Source of the DNA: a virus
Direction: 5' to 3' (one strand)
Length of the DNA: 20,597 nt
IMG/VR virus record: IMGVR_UViG_3300027082_000009
Coordinates: 1 to 20,597 of that record
A model generated the notes under the pieces. The model saw only the letters and a program-made list of their open reading frames with translations. It made no database searches and was not told where the DNA came from. Shown here one piece after another: positions 3,567 through 20,182 of this stretch. Made by a program: the position numbers and the translations under genes. Within the stretch, counting starts at the first letter, position 1. Each line of letters begins with the position of its first letter.

Positions 3567-3592
3567 TTTATTAAACCTAGATGGAGGTTATT

Positions 3593-4342
3593 ATGAATTA
3601 TGAGAAAGTATATGACGAGTTGATGTATTCCGCTAAAAAGCGTGGCGAGCCCCATGGATACTATGAGAAACACCATATTGTTCCAAGGTCTCTTGGCGGA
3701 GATAACTCGAAAGAAAATATTGTAAAACTTACTGCTAAAGAGCACCTTGTGGCGCATAAACTCCTTGTGAAGTTTAAAGAAGGAGAAGACAAAAGAAAAA
3801 TGCAGCGCGCATTCTTTTTTATGTTCTACAGTAATAATCCAGAAAGAAAATACTCAACAACTGATCTTGCCAAGGCGCGGGAACAGTACTCAGAGTCTCT
3901 TAAAGGACGGCCTTCATGGAACAAAGGACGTACATTAATACTGACAAAAGAGACAAGGGAACTTCTTTCTAAGAACGCTTATCACGCTTTAGAGTATGTA
4001 GATAATTCTGGTTTTGTTGTAGCAAAGGATTCTACCACAGGCAACAGAATCCGCGTGACAAAAGAAGAGTTTTATAATAATGACAATCTTGTTGGGGTTG
4101 CTTACGGAAACCAAATACCCGAACGAGCCCCTGTTAGTTTTAAAGAAATTTTCTCTGAAGAAGAGAGGAAGAATAAATTTGGAAGGGGCGGCCCCGCCAA
4201 TGGGGCGTCTAGAAAAAAGTCATTAGAAAGGTATGGCCAGATGTCTGATGAAGAGTTCGGGGAATGGTGTAAAGGCAAATCTTCAAGGGGCATTAAAAGG
4301 GCCCTGACATTCAGAAAACAATACTTAAGCGGGGGCTCTTAA
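3593..4342 (+). CDS. Free-standing HNH homing endonuclease
   Basis: Predicted site-specific DNA nuclease of the selfish homing type, 249 residues. The HNH module is near the N-terminus: His27-His28 in KHHIVPRSLGG, Asn42 in KENIVKL, and His51/His55 in KEHLVAHKLL. A NUMOD3-like DNA-binding segment follows around residues 103-125 (GRPSWNKGRT, LTKETRELL), and the C-terminus is Lys/Arg/Gly rich. I prefer the ATG at 3593 because GGAGG at 3583-3587 is correctly spaced for it; an in-frame ATG at 3581 overlaps that Shine-Dalgarno. The gene sits between minor head and protease genes, where no structural gene is needed, and its stop overlaps the protease start (TAATG). Arg codons AGA/AGG are common, unlike the capsid gene. 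Confidence 0.88.
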   Translation: MNYEKVYDELMYSAKKRGEPHGYYEKHHIVPRSLGGDNSKENIVKLTAKEHLVAHKLLVKFKEGEDKRKMQRAFFFMFYSNNPERKYSTTDLAKAREQYSESLKGRPSWNKGRTLILTKETRELLSKNAYHALEYVDNSGFVVAKDSTTGNRIRVTKEEFYNNDNLVGVAYGNQIPERAPVSFKEIFSEEERKNKFGRGGPANGASRKKSLERYGQMSDEEFGEWCKGKSSRGIKRALTFRKQYLSGGS

Positions 4343-7221: not shown

Positions 7222-7950
7222 TTGGCTAGAAACCAGAGAGCAATTTTTCCAACCCTTCCAGACGAAGAGACGTATTATGTATACGCCTTTTATGACAGGG
7301 GTGACATATTCTACATAGGGAAGGGTAGATGGTATAGGTGTACCAAGCACTTCTCTGAGTATTCATTGAAGGAAAGTACGCCCAAGAACAGCAAGATAAA
7401 GAAGGTCAACAAACAAGGACGCAAAGTCGAAGTAAGGTTTTTTGCCATACATTTGACTGAGCGAGAGGCGTTAGTTCTGGAGAAGAAACTGATTGAGTCA
7501 TATGGGTTGAAATCCGAAGGTGGAGTGTTAACCAATCTTCGCTATGGAAGCCTAGACTCAGCGGGTCTTTGGACAGAGGATCGGAAGAAGCTGCACTCAG
7601 AAAGACTTCGTGGAAAGAACAGCAATGTTCCTCTTGACCTTGTTAAGAAAGCGAAGTGCCTATCTTACTATAGAGGTATGAAGCTGAAAGACATTGTTCA
7701 GTTAGACGAGTTTGCTGAGTACAATCTCTCACCGGGAACCATCCGTAATTGGTGCCAAGGCAAGAAGTTTTCTTATATACTTCCTCACTTGAACCACGAC
7801 AGAAGTACAATTCGTAATGAGAAGTACAACGAGTTCTTAAATCTCTTTGAGAAGGGTTTTGCGTTAAAGCAAATCTCTGACATTCTGGGACTAGAGATTC
7901 CGTTAGTCCATCATTACAACTCCTGTCGTAAAAACGAAGGTTCCTCATGA
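7222..7950 (+). CDS. Free-standing GIY-YIG homing endonuclease
   Basis: Predicted homing nuclease, 242 residues. The GIY-YIG core lies at residues 13-95: YYVYAFYDRGDIFYIGKG gives the two signature strands. Arg in GRWYRCTKHF is the candidate catalytic Arg, and the metal-binding Glu lies in EREALVLEKKLIESYG. The C-terminal part has a helix-turn-helix-like segment (SPGTIRNWCQGKKF) and a final helical repeat, as in DNA-binding tails of phage homing endonucleases. The start is TTG at 7222, set by GGAGGT five bases upstream; there is no usable in-frame ATG nearby. It lies between the capsid and the next virion gene and has its own promoter and a masked ribosome binding site, so it appears independently regulated. 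Confidence 0.9.
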   Translation: MARNQRAIFPTLPDEETYYVYAFYDRGDIFYIGKGRWYRCTKHFSEYSLKESTPKNSKIKKVNKQGRKVEVRFFAIHLTEREALVLEKKLIESYGLKSEGGVLTNLRYGSLDSAGLWTEDRKKLHSERLRGKNSNVPLDLVKKAKCLSYYRGMKLKDIVQLDEFAEYNLSPGTIRNWCQGKKFSYILPHLNHDRSTIRNEKYNEFLNLFEKGFALKQISDILGLEIPLVHHYNSCRKNEGSS

Positions 7951-11052: not shown

Positions 11053-12066
11053 ATGGCTGACGTTAGCGAAATTATTGAAATTAACATCTCGCGTGAAACA
11101 CGCGGTGTATCCCGGCAGGGTTTTGGAACCCCGCTTTTCATTGGCTCAACAACTGGTGTGTATTCTGATGGCGAATATATTCGCAGTTATACCACTGCTG
11201 ATGCCGTTCTTGAAGACTTCGGTGATGGTTCCCCAGAGTATACCGCAGCACTGCGTACTTTCGGTCAACAGATTTCCCCGACCTATTTGAAGATTGGTAA
11301 TCATAAGACTGGCACACTGTCTGTTGATTTCACTATTGGTACTGTTGAAGATAGCACTGCTTACAGCATTACTATTGACAGTGTTCTTGTGGAAATCACT
11401 TCTGGCACTGGTGTCATTGCTGAAGACATTGTTAATGATCTTGAAGCAGAATTTATTAATGTCAATGCTCCCGGTGCTTTCATTGATAATGAAGATGGTA
11501 CTTTTGAAGTTGTTCCCGAAGACCCGAACGACTTCACTTATGATAATACCGCAAACATTACTGCTGTCGAGAACACTGAAAGCATTGTTGAATCTTATGG
11601 TAAGATGAAAGAAGCTGACGATGATTTTTACTTCGTCACTCTTTACAGCCACTCTTCTTCCGATATTGAAGAGATGGCGGATACTGTAGAGTCTGAAAAG
11701 CGTATCTTCGTGACTTCTTACAGTGGTTCCGATGCCACAGATGCCCAAGACGAAAATGACATTGGTTCTGTTCTGCAAGCGAAAGACCTTGCCCGCACCA
11801 TGATCATTTATGCCGAAGATACCTCTGAACTTCCTGAGAATGCTTTTGTTGGTCTTCAGGCTCCGAAAGCTCCCGGTTCAACTACTTGGAAGTTTAAGAG
11901 TGTTTCTGGCGTGACTGTTTCAAATCTCACTACTACCCAAAGCCTTGTGCTGAAGGGTACTCAGTTTGATTATGGCAAGGGTTACAACACTTATGAGCGT
12001 GTTGGTGGTCGTAATATTCTTCGTGAAGGTCGCGTTGTAAATTCTGAATTTGTCGATAAACTTAAT
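11053..12066 (+). CDS. Tail sheath protein (DUF3383-like), exon 1
   Basis: First 338 residues of a contractile tail sheath, the outer tube that shortens on infection. The N-terminus (VSEIIEINISRETRGVSRQGFG, then PLFIGS) and the later KDLARTMIIYAED and GQYNTY-like region KGTQFDYGKGYNTYERVGGRNILREGRV match DUF3383 sheath proteins. Without splicing, translation would stop two codons into the intron after Asn338-Val-Ala. The exon boundary was placed after CTTAAT because the exon end pairs with an internal guide at 12080-12089, with a U-G pair at the splice site, and because joining to 12325 restores the motif NVIRFADWLEARM. The full spliced protein is 438 residues. Confidence 0.85.
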
Positions 12067-12324
12067 GTCGCCTGATAGGGTAACTTATCAGTGAAAACTC
12101 TGTGAATTCGGGGGAACTCTTAGCAGGTAAAGCTGAAGACAATCCCGAGCCAAGCTCGATTCTTAATAGAATCTTGAAGGTGTAACGACTATTATGTAGG
12201 ATCAAGTGATCCGAAGCGCAGAGCAACCTTTTCGGAGGTTGATGATATAGTCTGATCTATATAGAAATATATAGCTGCAAGTAATGTTGCGGGCATGGAT
12301 TAACGACCCATGTTGAACATATTG
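12067..12324 (+). ncRNA. Group I intron, 258 bp, ORF-less, in the tail sheath gene
   Basis: The catalytic core is visible. P4: TTCGGG (12107-12112) with CCCGAG (12144-12149). P6a hairpin: GATTCT/AGAATC (12158-12173). P7: GACTA (12187-12191) with TAGTC (12248-12252), inside the R-like TGTAACGACTA and S-like GATATAGTCT segments. P8 hairpin: GGATC/GATCC (12199-12212). P9: CTATATA/TATATAG (12257-12274) capped by a GAAA tetraloop. P1 is formed by the exon end GATAAACTTAAT and the guide GTAACTTATC (12080-12089), with two bulged bases and one mismatch. The terminal G is 12324. There is no room for an endonuclease gene. The boundaries come from the P1 U-G rule plus restored protein reading. Confidence 0.88.
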
Positions 12325-14968: not shown

Positions 14969-16129
14969 ATGGCAGGTGAAATTGCAAGTTTATTTGCGAA
15001 GCTTGGTTTCAAAGTTGACCGAAGAGGCTTGAAGTCTTTTGAAAAGGATTTGAAGGGTCTTAAGACAACTTTAGATTCTGAGAAGGGTGTTACTGGTGCT
15101 ACTAAGAAAGCTACAAAGTCCCAGAATAAACTCTTCAATGACATTAAAAAGAACTATTCTTCAAAGTTCAAACCTTCCTACGGGAAGATGAAAGAAGACT
15201 TGAGGAACCTTAAGCAGTCCTTTGCAGATGGTACTATCCAAGCAGAAGAATTCCAAGAGGCAAGGGGAAGGGTTCTAAAAGGTCTTCGTCAAGAAAATAA
15301 GAAATATTTTTCTAAGCAACGTCAACAGATTGCTGCACAAACTGCTGCTGAGAAAAGGGCTGCTGCTGAATTTAATCGTATTCAAAAAGAACGTACTAAG
15401 TTTGTTAATCAGCAGGCAACTGAAGCAGAACGTGCAGAACGTAAGAAACAAACAGCTTATCAAAAGACCCGTGCAAAACTTCTTCAGATTGAAAAGGGGT
15501 TTGATAAACACTCTGCACAGCTTAGGGAAATGCGTGATAGGTTCTCTTATGTGAATCAAGAGTACAAGAAAGGTAATATTACTCTTGAGAGACGTAGAGC
15601 ACTTTTGCAAGGAATCTATGCAGATTATCGTAGAGTTCAAGCTGCACAGTTAGCAACATCTGCTGGTAGTGTTGGTCCTTATGCTGGTGGTGCTGATCCT
15701 CGCCAACGGGGTACACACGGTCTTATCAGTGCTATCCACAGCGACCTTGCGATAGGTTCTATGATTGGTGGTTTTGCTGCCGCTCAATCTGTAAGGTCTT
15801 ATCAAGGCTTCCTCGCAATGGAGCAAGGCTTAACAGCAGCTACAGGAAGTGCTGAAAAAGCTGGTGAGGAGTTTGAATATCTTGTAGGACTTTCTAGGGA
15901 ACTTGGTCTTTTCGTTGGTGATCTTGGCAAGGCTTATTCACAACTCTCAGCAGCCGCTAGAGGTACTAGTCTAACAAACCAAGAAGTAAGAGACACTTTT
16001 AGAGGTGTTGCTTCACAAGCAAGGGTTCTTAATCTGTCTACCGCTGATACTGAAGGTGTTATGCGGAGTCTTGTGCAGATGTTAAATAAAGGTCAAATCA
16101 TGGCCGAGGAACTTAAGAACCAAATGGGT
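14969..16129 (+). CDS. Tape measure protein, exon 1
   Basis: First 387 residues of the tail tape measure protein, which fixes tail length and is ejected with DNA. Residues about 1-240 are charged and coiled-coil-like (LKSFEKDLKGLKTTLDSE, then EKRAAAEFNRIQKERTK and similar). From about residue 275 comes the conserved tape-measure domain: GFLAMEQGLTAATGSAEKAGEEFEYL, FRGVASQARVLNLS, and GQIMAEELKNQMG at the exon end. Without splicing the frame stops at 16145-16147, within the guide sequence. The splice site after GGT (16129) follows from an 8-bp P1 with a terminal U-G pair. Shine-Dalgarno: GAAGG. Confidence 0.88.
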
Positions 16130-16380
16130 AGGCTTTTGCCCATTTAAAACCTGTCTAATTCGGGGAAACTCTCACTGAGACAATCCCGAGCGAAGCTTTG
16201 AAACATTCAATGAATGTGGATTTGAACGTGTAACGACTAACTGTACTCTACAAGCGATTGGTAGGGGAAACGGCAGGCTTTGGTGAAAACCATTGAAGAT
16301 ATAGTCTCAACTTCTATGGCGACATAGAGATGCAGGTAAAGCTGCTGATAGAACCGTAGCGGGTTTTATTGAAGACACTG
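16130..16380 (+). ncRNA. Group I intron, 251 bp, ORF-less, in the tape measure gene
   Basis: P1: exon end AAATGGGT (16122-16129) pairs with guide GCCCATTT (16138-16145), including the required U-G at the splice site. P4: TTCGGG (16159-16164) with CCCGAG (16185-16190). P6a-type hairpin: ACATTC/GAATGT (about 16203-16217). P7: GACTA (16235-16239) with TAGTC (16302-16306), inside TGTAACGACTA and GATATAGTCT. P9: CTATG/CATAG (16314-16327) capped by a GCGA tetraloop. The last base is G16380. Joining 16129 to 16381 gives NQMG-ERLPGSMQ, the expected uninterrupted tape-measure motif. Core segments resemble the sheath intron closely. Confidence 0.92.
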
Positions 16381-17565
16381 GAAAGACTCCCCGGTAGTAT
16401 GCAGGCTGCAAGCCGTGCTGCATATAATCTGGGAATTACTCAAGAAGCAACTACACAAGAACTCTTCAAAGCTATGGAGCAAGGTAAGCTCATGGCAGAG
16501 GAATTCTTGCCAGAGTTCTCCAAAGAACTCTTGAAAGCTGCTAATGAAGGTGGTGCTCTTGCAGAAGCAATGCAGACTACCGGCGCTGCAATTGGTAGAT
16601 TTCAAACTAACTTCTGGCTTGCTAACAAGACCTTTAACGAATCCGGCTTCGACAAAAACATAAGAATCCTGATTAATACTTTCAGCGATTTTTTGCAAGA
16701 ATCTGAAGGTCTTTTCCAGTTCCTCGGTGAAATGTCCGAATTTGTTATCTACCCTTTAAGGGCAGCCGGTGAAGCCCTTGAGCTTGTTGGTATCAAACTG
16801 ACAGATTTTGCAGAATCCTCTGAGGGCAACATTGCAAAACTCAAAGCCCTTTCGGCTTTCTTCCTCAGTTTGTTCAAGACAGGTAGAAAACTTCTTGCTG
16901 TATTTTTGCTTATCCCTATGGCATCTTCGGGGCTTACAAAGTTTGTGCGAGAGGGCAATCTTGAATGGTCTGAATGGCTTGCAACGCTCGGCAGTATTGC
17001 GGGTATTCTCGCTTGGATGTACAGCCTGAAGAAGCCCAAGATACTTGGGAATATTGGCGGTTCTGTCTTGGGTGGCGCTGCTGCTGGTGCTGGTGCTGGT
17101 GTGGTAAAGAGGTCACTGCCAGTAAAAATTGTCTCTCTGTTGGGCTTGGGCTCGATGGCGAAAGTGGCTTCTGTCCTGTATTCTAAAAAGATTGGCGGCA
17201 GCGAGCAACTTGATTATCTCCCCCAAGGCTCAGAAGGAATGACACCTTTTGTCCCACAACCTAGTTATAACGAAACCCCCGGCGCTGATCCAAGAGCAAG
17301 TCAGCGATCAATGCTTGATAGGTTCGGGGAGGCTGTGACAAACTGGGCAGATAAAAGGATTCAGCAATACGAGGAAGGCATGAACCAACCTTGGAATCCT
17401 AATTATCAACCCGAGCCCAATGCTAGAACATCCATCATTAATAATGATGTGACTTTCAACATTGAGGGCGGAGATGCCGCACAAGTTGAAGACAGCGTAA
17501 TTCGTGTTATTAACGAATATCTGATTCGACCAACAAGTGCAAATGAACCCGTAACAGAGAAGTAA
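16381..17565 (+). CDS. Tape measure protein, exon 2
   Basis: Residues 388-781 of the tape measure protein. It opens with ERLPGSMQAASRAAYNLGIT, which completes the conserved (N/Q)Q(M/L)GERLPGA motif begun in exon 1. It then has ELFKAMEQGKLMAEEFLPEFSKELLKAA, another conserved helix of this family. Hydrophobic segments follow, LLAVFLLIPMASSG, WLATLGSIAGILAWMYSL and a Gly/Ala stretch GGAAAGAGAGVV, suited to membrane insertion during ejection. The C-terminal 100 residues are polar. An apparent TTG start at 16369 lies in the intron and is not used. With the usual ratio of about 1.5 angstrom per residue, 781 residues predict a tail near 115-120 nm. Confidence 0.88.
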   Translation, partial: ERLPGSMQAASRAAYNLGITQEATTQELFKAMEQGKLMAEEFLPEFSKELLKAANEGGALAEAMQTTGAAIGRFQTNFWLANKTFNESGFDKNIRILINTFSDFLQESEGLFQFLGEMSEFVIYPLRAAGEALELVGIKLTDFAESSEGNIAKLKALSAFFLSLFKTGRKLLAVFLLIPMASSGLTKFVREGNLEWSEWLATLGSIAGILAWMYSLKKPKILGNIGGSVLGGAAAGAGAGVVKRSLPVKIVSLLGLGSMAKVASVLYSKKIGGSEQLDYLPQGSEGMTPFVPQPSYNETPGADPRASQRSMLDRFGEAVTNWADKRIQQYEEGMNQPWNPNYQPEPNARTSIINNDVTFNIEGGDAAQVEDSVIRVINEYLIRPTSANEPVTEK

Positions 17566-19009: not shown

Positions 19010-19030
19010 CCCCTATTACAAGGGGTCTTT
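19008..19030. terminator. Bidirectional terminator-like hairpin between convergent genes
   Basis: GACCCCT (19008-19014) and AGGGGTC (19021-19027) form a perfect 7-bp stem with a 6-nt loop. TTT follows on the + strand; the minus side runs into ATAATT. It overlaps the stop codons of both flanking genes (TGA of the plug, TAA of the endonuclease). U-runs are short, so termination may be partial. Confidence 0.6.
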
Positions 19031-20152
19031 CATCAATCTGATTATATTGTGCTCTTCGCTTAAATCAAAACATTCAGAACGTCCTGCAAACTTCTTTTCT
19101 GGAAAGTGTTTCATTAATTCGCTGTCCATCAGAATATCTTGTTCTCTTTGAAAGAGTTTTCTAGCTGGAGAATCCTTAACAATAAAAACAACTTCTATAT
19201 CTCTATAGCCGCTGTTTCGTTGTATTTCCAGAATGCGTCTATTGACATCCTTTGATAAACCAATTTTTAGAAATTCGGAATCTATCTTTAATAGGTATAA
19301 ATTACTCTTATTATTGTTACTCCCGTAGAAACCTGCCAGACCATAAGCAGAATTTCTCTTCCAATATTCGCCATTCTTTCTCTTTTCCTCGCTACACTCT
19401 GGACAACCAGTCTTATCGTAGTAGTGAGAAAATGCTGACAAGAAGAAACTACCATGGCGCGGGCAAACGATTTCGGATTTATTTTTCATGTTTTTATAAG
19501 AGAACTTTGAATAATCATATAACTCTTCATGAACTTCTTTAAATCTGGATAGCCAACAAGGAAGACTATTGCATTTCGTGCAAAGAGGACACCCGCCATT
19601 TCTTAAGTGTGATGTCGGAGTTTGCATGAAGTAACCATGTACTCTGCACCCTATTTTAATTTTTGTTCTTTTATCAACATACTCAACTTTTGAATAATCA
19701 TAGAGGTTTCCGTATTTTTCAAAAGCACTATTTAGAAAACCTTCTTTTGTTTTTCTTTTCGAGTTTTTGATTTTTTCGTTACCGCAAGATGGGCATCCGT
19801 ATTTAAGATGGTTCCCAGCCTTTTGAGTAAATGTGCCATGTGCAGGACATGAAATCTCTACTGTCGTTGAAGAATTGAACTTTCTGACATTTGGGTTTTG
19901 ATAAGAATAAAAATCTCCGTGCTTCTTCTTGGCCCTCTCCAAGAAATTCTTCCATGTATATCTTAAAACATTTGAACATGTCGGACAACCACTACCGGAC
20001 AAGAAGTGTTGCCTTCTTTTGTAGAACTGTCCATGTGTTTTACACATTGCAGTGACGTAAGGCGAATTTTTGATCACCATAGACCAATCAAGACAATAAG
20101 TATTTCCATGTACAGCGCGAACTTTTTCAAGATACTTTTTCAAGTCTAGCAT
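19016..20152 (-). CDS. Zinc-ribbon repeat / GIY-YIG-like homing endonuclease, opposite strand
   Basis: Predicted mobile DNA nuclease, 378 residues. The first 270 residues hold four DUF723-like repeats, each about 60 residues and shaped K.HG..YdYs ... C..HG.F....  H....GCP.C. Examples are CKTHGQF ... GSGCPTC, CPAHGTF ... YGCPSC, CRVHGYF ... GGCPLC and CPRHGSF ... TGCPEC, the cysteines being likely zinc ligands for DNA binding. The C-terminal domain NLYLLKIDSEFLKIGLSKDVNRRILEIQ resembles a divergent GIY-YIG/T5orf172 nuclease: KIG replaces YIG, with Arg in NRRI and Glu in FQREQDIL as candidate catalytic residues. I prefer the ATG at 20152, which has GAGGGAGAG upstream; an ATG at 20170 is only a few bases from the predicted transcript start. 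Confidence 0.82.
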   Translation of the reverse strand: MLDLKKYLEKVRAVHGNTYCLDWSMVIKNSPYVTAMCKTHGQFYKRRQHFLSGSGCPTCSNVLRYTWKNFLERAKKKHGDFYSYQNPNVRKFNSSTTVEISCPAHGTFTQKAGNHLKYGCPSCGNEKIKNSKRKTKEGFLNSAFEKYGNLYDYSKVEYVDKRTKIKIGCRVHGYFMQTPTSHLRNGGCPLCTKCNSLPCWLSRFKEVHEELYDYSKFSYKNMKNKSEIVCPRHGSFFLSAFSHYYDKTGCPECSEEKRKNGEYWKRNSAYGLAGFYGSNNNKSNLYLLKIDSEFLKIGLSKDVNRRILEIQRNSGYRDIEVVFIVKDSPARKLFQREQDILMDSELMKHFPEKKFAGRSECFDLSEEHNIIRLMKDPL

Positions 20153-20182
20153 AAAAACTCTCCCTCTCATTATCCTACAATT

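What the first reader, a model, noticed from the sequence alone, without database searches (positions are those of the whole stretch)
16130..16380. Second ORF-less group I intron, in the tape measure gene
P1 is an 8-bp helix with the diagnostic U-G at the splice site, and the ends fuse NQMG to ERLPGSMQ, rebuilding a strongly conserved tape-measure motif. The element is only 251 bp, has a full core and a GCGA-capped P9, and carries no endonuclease.
Basis: partly seen in the sequence, partly recalled or inferred. Interest (0 to 1): 0.82.

Follow-up and report, generated by a model that had tools for sequence, protein, structure and literature searches.

The report
Self-splicing intron in phage tail gene
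A 251-base self-removing RNA insert (group I intron) sits in the gene that sets the length of a phage's tail, at a spot where other phages carry similar inserts; it is real but belongs to a well-known kind.

Summary
Window 16130-16380 is a complete, ORF-less group I intron (Rfam RF00028, 77.7 bits against a cutoff of 50, E 1.6e-18) in the tape measure protein (TMP) gene. P1 is 8 bp with U·G at the splice site, P10 is 5 bp, the core is complete, P9 is GCGA-capped and the last base is G. Core helices covary across nine related introns. Joining 16129 to 16381 rebuilds one 781-codon TMP. A syntenic relative (IMGVR_UViG_3300030100_000603) has an uninterrupted TMP at this junction and also lacks the window's other intron, in the tail sheath gene, so both boundaries are confirmed by empty sites.

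It is not a new kind of thing. The same TMP position holds introns in Vibrio phages 10AMN, vB_CoeS_P1, 1.084.O and ICP1 and in several IMG/VR contigs; ICP1 TMP splicing was shown experimentally (PMC10448857). More interesting: this motif is an intron hotspot, with seven insertion positions within 66 coding bases across marine and vibrio phages and introns of more than one lineage at the window's own site. Splicing of this copy is inferred, not shown. Verdict: new member of a known kind.

The parts
14969..16129 (+). exon 1 of the tape measure protein gene (387 codons); unspliced ORF runs to an in-frame TAA at 16145-16147
16130..16380 (+). ORF-less group I intron, 251 nt
   Evidence: RF00028 77.7 bits; boundaries by P1, P10, terminal G, reading frame and empty sites in relatives
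16122..16145 (+). P1: exon AAAUGGGU (16122-16129) with internal guide GCCCAUUU (16138-16145), U-G at splice site; loop 16133-16137 is the P10 strand
16150..16277 (+). P3 (16150-16155/16272-16277), enclosing P4 (16159-16164/16185-16190), P5 (16170-16173/16177-16180), P6 and a P7.2-like hairpin (16246-16251/16261-16266)
16235..16306 (+). P7, guanosine-binding helix GACUA/UAGUC (16235-16239/16302-16306), enclosing P8 (16281-16284/16289-16292)
16312..16370 (+). P9 with GCGA tetraloop (16312-16329), P9.1 (16332-16345), P9.2 (16347-16370)
16381..17565 (+). exon 2 of the tape measure protein gene (starts GAA AGA CTC, ERLPGSMQ); first five bases form P10

Best explanation
16130-16380 is a group I (IA-type) self-splicing intron that has lost, or never had, a homing endonuclease gene. 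In the transcript the guide GCCCAUUU binds the end of exon 1 (P1), a free guanosine held by P7 attacks after U16129, the exon end then attacks after G16380 with P10 positioning exon 2, and one 781-aa tape measure protein is made. The copy probably reached this site by homing or recombination from another phage, because the same position holds introns in other phages and is empty in the nearest relative. Sequence, structure, covariation, same-site introns and empty sites are shown here; catalysis in this phage and the route of arrival are inferred.
For: Rfam hit over cutoff. Complete P1, P3-P9, P10 and terminal G. Of 41 pairs over nine related introns, 96.4% of cells are standard pairs and 26 pairs change on both sides, 0 of 500 shuffles as high; slid controls fall to 36-46% paired. 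P1 covaries: exon base -4 is G, A, G, C, U in window, 10AMN, P1, L152 and 1.084.O, with guide partner C, U, U, G, A. The syntenic relative G001/L154 has uninterrupted TMP (55% aa identity) and uninterrupted sheath (79%) through both junctions; L101 and L102 DNA shows the empty site. Introns at the identical codon boundary in 10AMN, vB_CoeS_P1, 1.084.O, ICP1, L123, L152, L107. ICP1 TMP: four exons, three introns, shown by RNA-seq, RT-PCR and Sanger sequencing (PMC10448857). No endonuclease ORF fits in 251 nt.
Against: No RNA data for this phage. The window is a 20.6-kb virus record, so host and transcript cannot be examined. P8 has an irregular base with U-U mismatches. Whether this copy splices without protein help is unknown.
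Confidence: 0.96

Rival explanations
1. A dead or poorly spliced intron: the TMP is made as two polypeptides, the first ending at the in-frame TAA at 16145-16147 and the second starting at TTG 16369.
For: Mechanical ORFs exist on both sides.
Against: All core helices and P1/P10 are intact and covary; the split falls inside the most conserved TMP motif; by eye there is no Shine-Dalgarno-like stretch just before TTG 16369 (sequence); ICP1's TMP introns in the same motif are spliced.
Confidence: 0.03
2. The intron is still mobile in trans, carried into new genomes by a free-standing endonuclease of the same phage (collaborative homing), for instance the GIY-YIG at 7222-7950 or the endonuclease at 19016-20170. 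This concerns mobility and does not contradict the main explanation.
For: Three free-standing endonuclease genes in the window; such collaboration is discussed for ICP1 terL.
Against: None is adjacent to the intron (nearest is 2.6 kb away); no cleavage specificity is known.
Confidence: 0.15
3. A non-ribozyme insertion bypassed by ribosome hopping or removed as an intein.
For: The flanks fuse in frame.
Against: The insert has no open frame for an intein, and it matches the group I covariance model with covarying helices.
Confidence: 0.005

Closest known systems
Vibrio phage ICP1 tape measure introns (Barth et al. 2023, PMC10448857)
   Same: Group I introns in the TMP gene, one of them at the identical codon boundary G|E as delimited here (L095:2173-2500); TMP splicing proven by RNA-seq, RT-PCR and Sanger sequencing.
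   Different: ICP1 has three introns with 8- and 16-nt exons between them and an HNH gene in the middle one; its site-D intron falls in another part of the intron tree.
Site-D introns of Vibrio phages 10AMN (OR472329) and vB_CoeS_P1 (PV206818) and of IMGVR_UViG_3300036546_000019 (L152)
   Same: Same insertion position, ORF-less, 276-286 nt; 10AMN_D and P1_D are the nearest rows to the window intron in the tree (67% identity to 10AMN_D).
   Different: 10AMN and P1 carry further introns in the same motif; L152 has the single site-D intron only, like the window. Not annotated as introns in the phage records seen here.
Mycobacteriophage BAKA tail-gene intron (PMC3706429)
   Same: ORF-less, 265-bp intron in a phage tail gene, RT-PCR confirmed.
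   Different: Different tail gene (minor tail protein) and host group; intron type described there as most likely group I.
Phage group IA introns in general (for instance Bastillevirinae, PMC11878797)
   Same: Same model family (RF00028) and splicing chemistry; an extra hairpin between P7 and P3.
   Different: Those surveyed sit in polymerase, reductase and terminase genes, and most carry endonuclease genes.

Membership tests
Group I intron (RF00028) | Match to covariance model above curated score | tested here: met
   77.7 bits against 50
Group I intron (RF00028) | 5' exon ends in U paired with G of the internal guide (P1), intron ends in G | tested here: met
   8-bp P1, U16129-G16138, G16380
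Group I intron (RF00028) | P3-P9 core with P7 guanosine-binding helix | tested here: met
   All helices present; covariation 0 of 500 shuffles
Group I intron (RF00028) | Removal restores an uninterrupted host gene | tested here: met
   Spliced TMP and empty sites in relatives
Group I intron (RF00028) | Self-splicing with guanosine cofactor | not testable with these tools
   No RNA experiment possible; in vivo splicing of the ICP1 TMP shown by others
Group IA2 subgroup | Extra hairpin(s) between P7 and P3 (P7.1/P7.2) | tested here: inconclusive
   A hairpin CUCUAC/GUAGGG lies there, which fits IA; subgroup models were not available
Mobile (endonuclease-bearing) group I intron | Encodes a homing endonuclease | tested here: not met
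   No ORF of useful length in 251 nt

The most novel reading that the evidence does not exclude
The TMP motif KGQIMAEELKGQLGERLPGA is a general intron hotspot of marine and vibrio phages: seven insertion positions in 66 coding bases, with different intron lineages arriving at the same position, and ORF-less copies such as the window's may persist because they occupy and so protect a site that competing endonucleases cut.
Probability: 0.3. Interest if true: 0.55.

Novelty: new member of a known kind. Interest (0 to 1): 0.38.

Why it matters
The tape measure gene (and the tail sheath gene) of this phage should be annotated as split genes joined by RNA splicing. It adds a clean, minimal, single-intron case to a TMP hotspot in which other phages pile up three or four introns with exons as short as 8 nt, which makes the question of why introns choose the most conserved few codons of a structural gene directly testable. 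It also adds structural-gene cases to a literature that stresses nucleotide-metabolism, polymerase and terminase genes as intron hosts.

Tried and rejected
A viral-contig scan with the exon 1 protein alone found nothing; an alignment of exon 2 was needed. An exact search for the window's own P1 region in viral contigs gave none. P8 was first taken in the 8-bp register given by RNAfold and replaced by the 4-bp UGGU/ACCA form, because the longer form would pair J8/7. I first counted contigs L105, L106, L119 and L129 as site D; closer reading places their introns 5 nt upstream (site D2; L119 and L129 checked). The idea that all site-D introns are one lineage was tested and rejected (AU p 0.014), with the caution that the alignment of 306 columns is short. 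Intein, ribosome-hop and two-protein readings were considered and judged unlikely.

Full report
WHAT IS THERE. The window is a complete virus record of 20,597 bases. Rfam's group I model hits it twice above its cutoff: 12048-12274 (92.3 bits) and 16074-16329 (77.7 bits, E 1.6e-18), both on the + strand. The second is the finding.

STRUCTURE. P1 is AAAUGGGU/GCCCAUUU, 8 bp with U-G at the splice site. The five bases before the guide, CUUUU, pair with the first five of exon 2, GAAAG (P10). P3 CCUGUC/GGCAGG, P4 UUCGGG/CCCGAG, P5 UCUC/GAGA, P7 GACUA/UAGUC, a hairpin CUCUAC/GUAGGG between P7 and P3, P8, P9 with a GCGA loop, P9.1 and P9.2 follow. On an alignment of nine related introns, 96.4% of cells in 41 pairs are standard pairs, 26 pairs have double-sided changes and no shuffle of 500 reaches this; sliding the partners by 1-3 columns drops pairing to 36-46%. 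The slid control is partly biased because the structure was drawn on one of these rows, but the double-sided changes in P3, P4, P5 and P9.2 are not explained by that. P1 covaries between exon and guide: at exon position -4 the window, 10AMN, P1, L152 and 1.084.O have G, A, G, C, U and the guide has C, U, U, G, A.

HOST GENE. The two ORFs 14969-16147 and 16369-17565 hold the halves of a tape measure protein. Joined at 16129/16381 they make a 781-aa protein; Pfam TMP_3 aligns exon 1 up to profile position 115 and exon 2 from 115 on, with 77.8 bits for the joined protein against 51.7 and 22.6. The junction lies in the best conserved motif of the family, KGQIMAEELKNQMG|ERLPGSMQ, with which intronless phage TMPs align without gap.

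EMPTY SITES. An alignment of exon 2 sequences found two IMG/VR relatives with no intron there: L101 (72% identity over the first 112 residues of exon 2) reads NKGTVMAEELKNQLG|ERLPGSMQAAARAA straight through, and L102 (63%) likewise. L101's contig (G001) is syntenic with the window; its sheath protein (435 aa, 79% identity) and its TMP (55%) run uninterrupted through both of the window's intron sites. G001 carries one RF00028 intron elsewhere.

SAME-SITE INTRONS ELSEWHERE. The best DNA relatives of the window intron lie in Vibrio phages. Reading them, I found that several sit in TMP genes and are not annotated as introns. Using letters for positions, the window's site is D (G|E). vB_CoeS_P1 has introns at A, B, C and D with exons of 18, 8 and 16 nt between them. 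10AMN has A, C, D; 1.084.O has A, B, D; ICP1 has B, C, D; 193E37-1 has C; 1.193.O has Z and C. L123 and L128, identical here, have at least A and D by P1 and 3' end and a C-type intron between them, and L107 has an endonuclease-bearing intron at D. L152 has one ORF-less intron, at D only, like the window. L119 and L129 show a further site, D2, 5 nt upstream of D, and J2-1 (L099) one more, E, after LPG, judged against the uninterrupted L108. That is seven positions (Z, A, B, C, D2, D, E) in 66 coding bases.

SPLICING EVIDENCE. Barth et al. (PMC10448857) showed by RNA-seq, RT-PCR and Sanger sequencing that ICP1's TMP mRNA has four exons and three introns, the middle one usually holding an HNH gene. 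That agrees with my three ICP1 introns (B, C with HNH, D). Their figure was not available to me, so the identity of their third junction with my site D is inferred from the sequence and the count.

DESCENT. In a tree of 18 introns the window's nearest rows are 10AMN_D and P1_D; ICP1_D and 1084_D fall elsewhere, and holding all site-D introns together is rejected (AU p 0.014). Site-C introns do group (71/88 support). Labels by site are clustered more than in shuffles (7 changes against a mean of 11). So site identity partly tracks lineage, as expected of homing, and site D has probably been entered more than once. The alignment is short, and many branches are weak.

MECHANISM. Shown: the anatomy, the exact site and the relatives. 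Inferred: splicing by the two-step guanosine reaction in this phage; arrival by homing or recombination; loss of an endonuclease gene (other introns at site D carry one: 1.084.O and L107). The in-frame TAA at 16145-16147, at the end of P1, would stop ribosomes before the core, which from general knowledge of phage introns helps folding; I did not test it.

NOVELTY. Introns in phage tail genes (BAKA, PMC3706429) and in TMP genes (ICP1) are published; ORF-less ones as well. The Bastillevirinae survey (PMC11878797) stresses polymerase, reductase and terminase genes. I found no paper that describes the TMP motif as a hotspot with many positions, but the library holds only open-licence papers. The finding itself is a new member of a known kind; the hotspot is the part a specialist would want.

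Noticed in passing
window 12058-12324: First ORF-less group I intron, 267 nt, in the tail sheath gene (DUF3383/phrog_205); junction EFVD|VIRFADW, uninterrupted in relative G001 (79% identity). DNA relatives in terminase genes of Aeromonas phages phiA009/phiA019 (72.7%).
   Followed up: partly
window 3581-4342, 7222-7950, 19016-20170 (-): Three free-standing homing endonuclease-like genes: HNH, GIY-YIG (next to the major head protein gene) and a phrog_681 endonuclease; the first and third have no counterpart in the 19.9-kb syntenic stretch of G001 searched, while a GIY-YIG relative lies elsewhere there, upstream of the sheath gene.
   Followed up: partly
L007:2333-3546 (Vibrio phage vB_CoeS_P1, PV206818.1): Four group I introns within 18 codons of the tape measure gene, leaving exons of 18, 8 and 16 nt; not annotated as introns in the record.
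   Followed up: yes
window 16080-16129 and 16381-16395 (coding positions): Tape measure motif is an intron hotspot: seven insertion positions in 66 coding bases across phages, with more than one intron lineage at the window's site.
   Followed up: partly
L003:929-1761 (Vibrio phage 10AMN, OR472329.1): A further intron carrying a 663-nt ORF (929-1591, product unnamed) seems to lie upstream of the three delimited ones in the same tape measure gene (partial RF00028 match 1557-1701); its 5' end was not delimited.
   Followed up: no
G001:C1:52076-52304 (L153): The relative with an intronless TMP has its own group I intron (81.1 bits) in what looks like the large terminase gene, near the P-loop.
   Followed up: no
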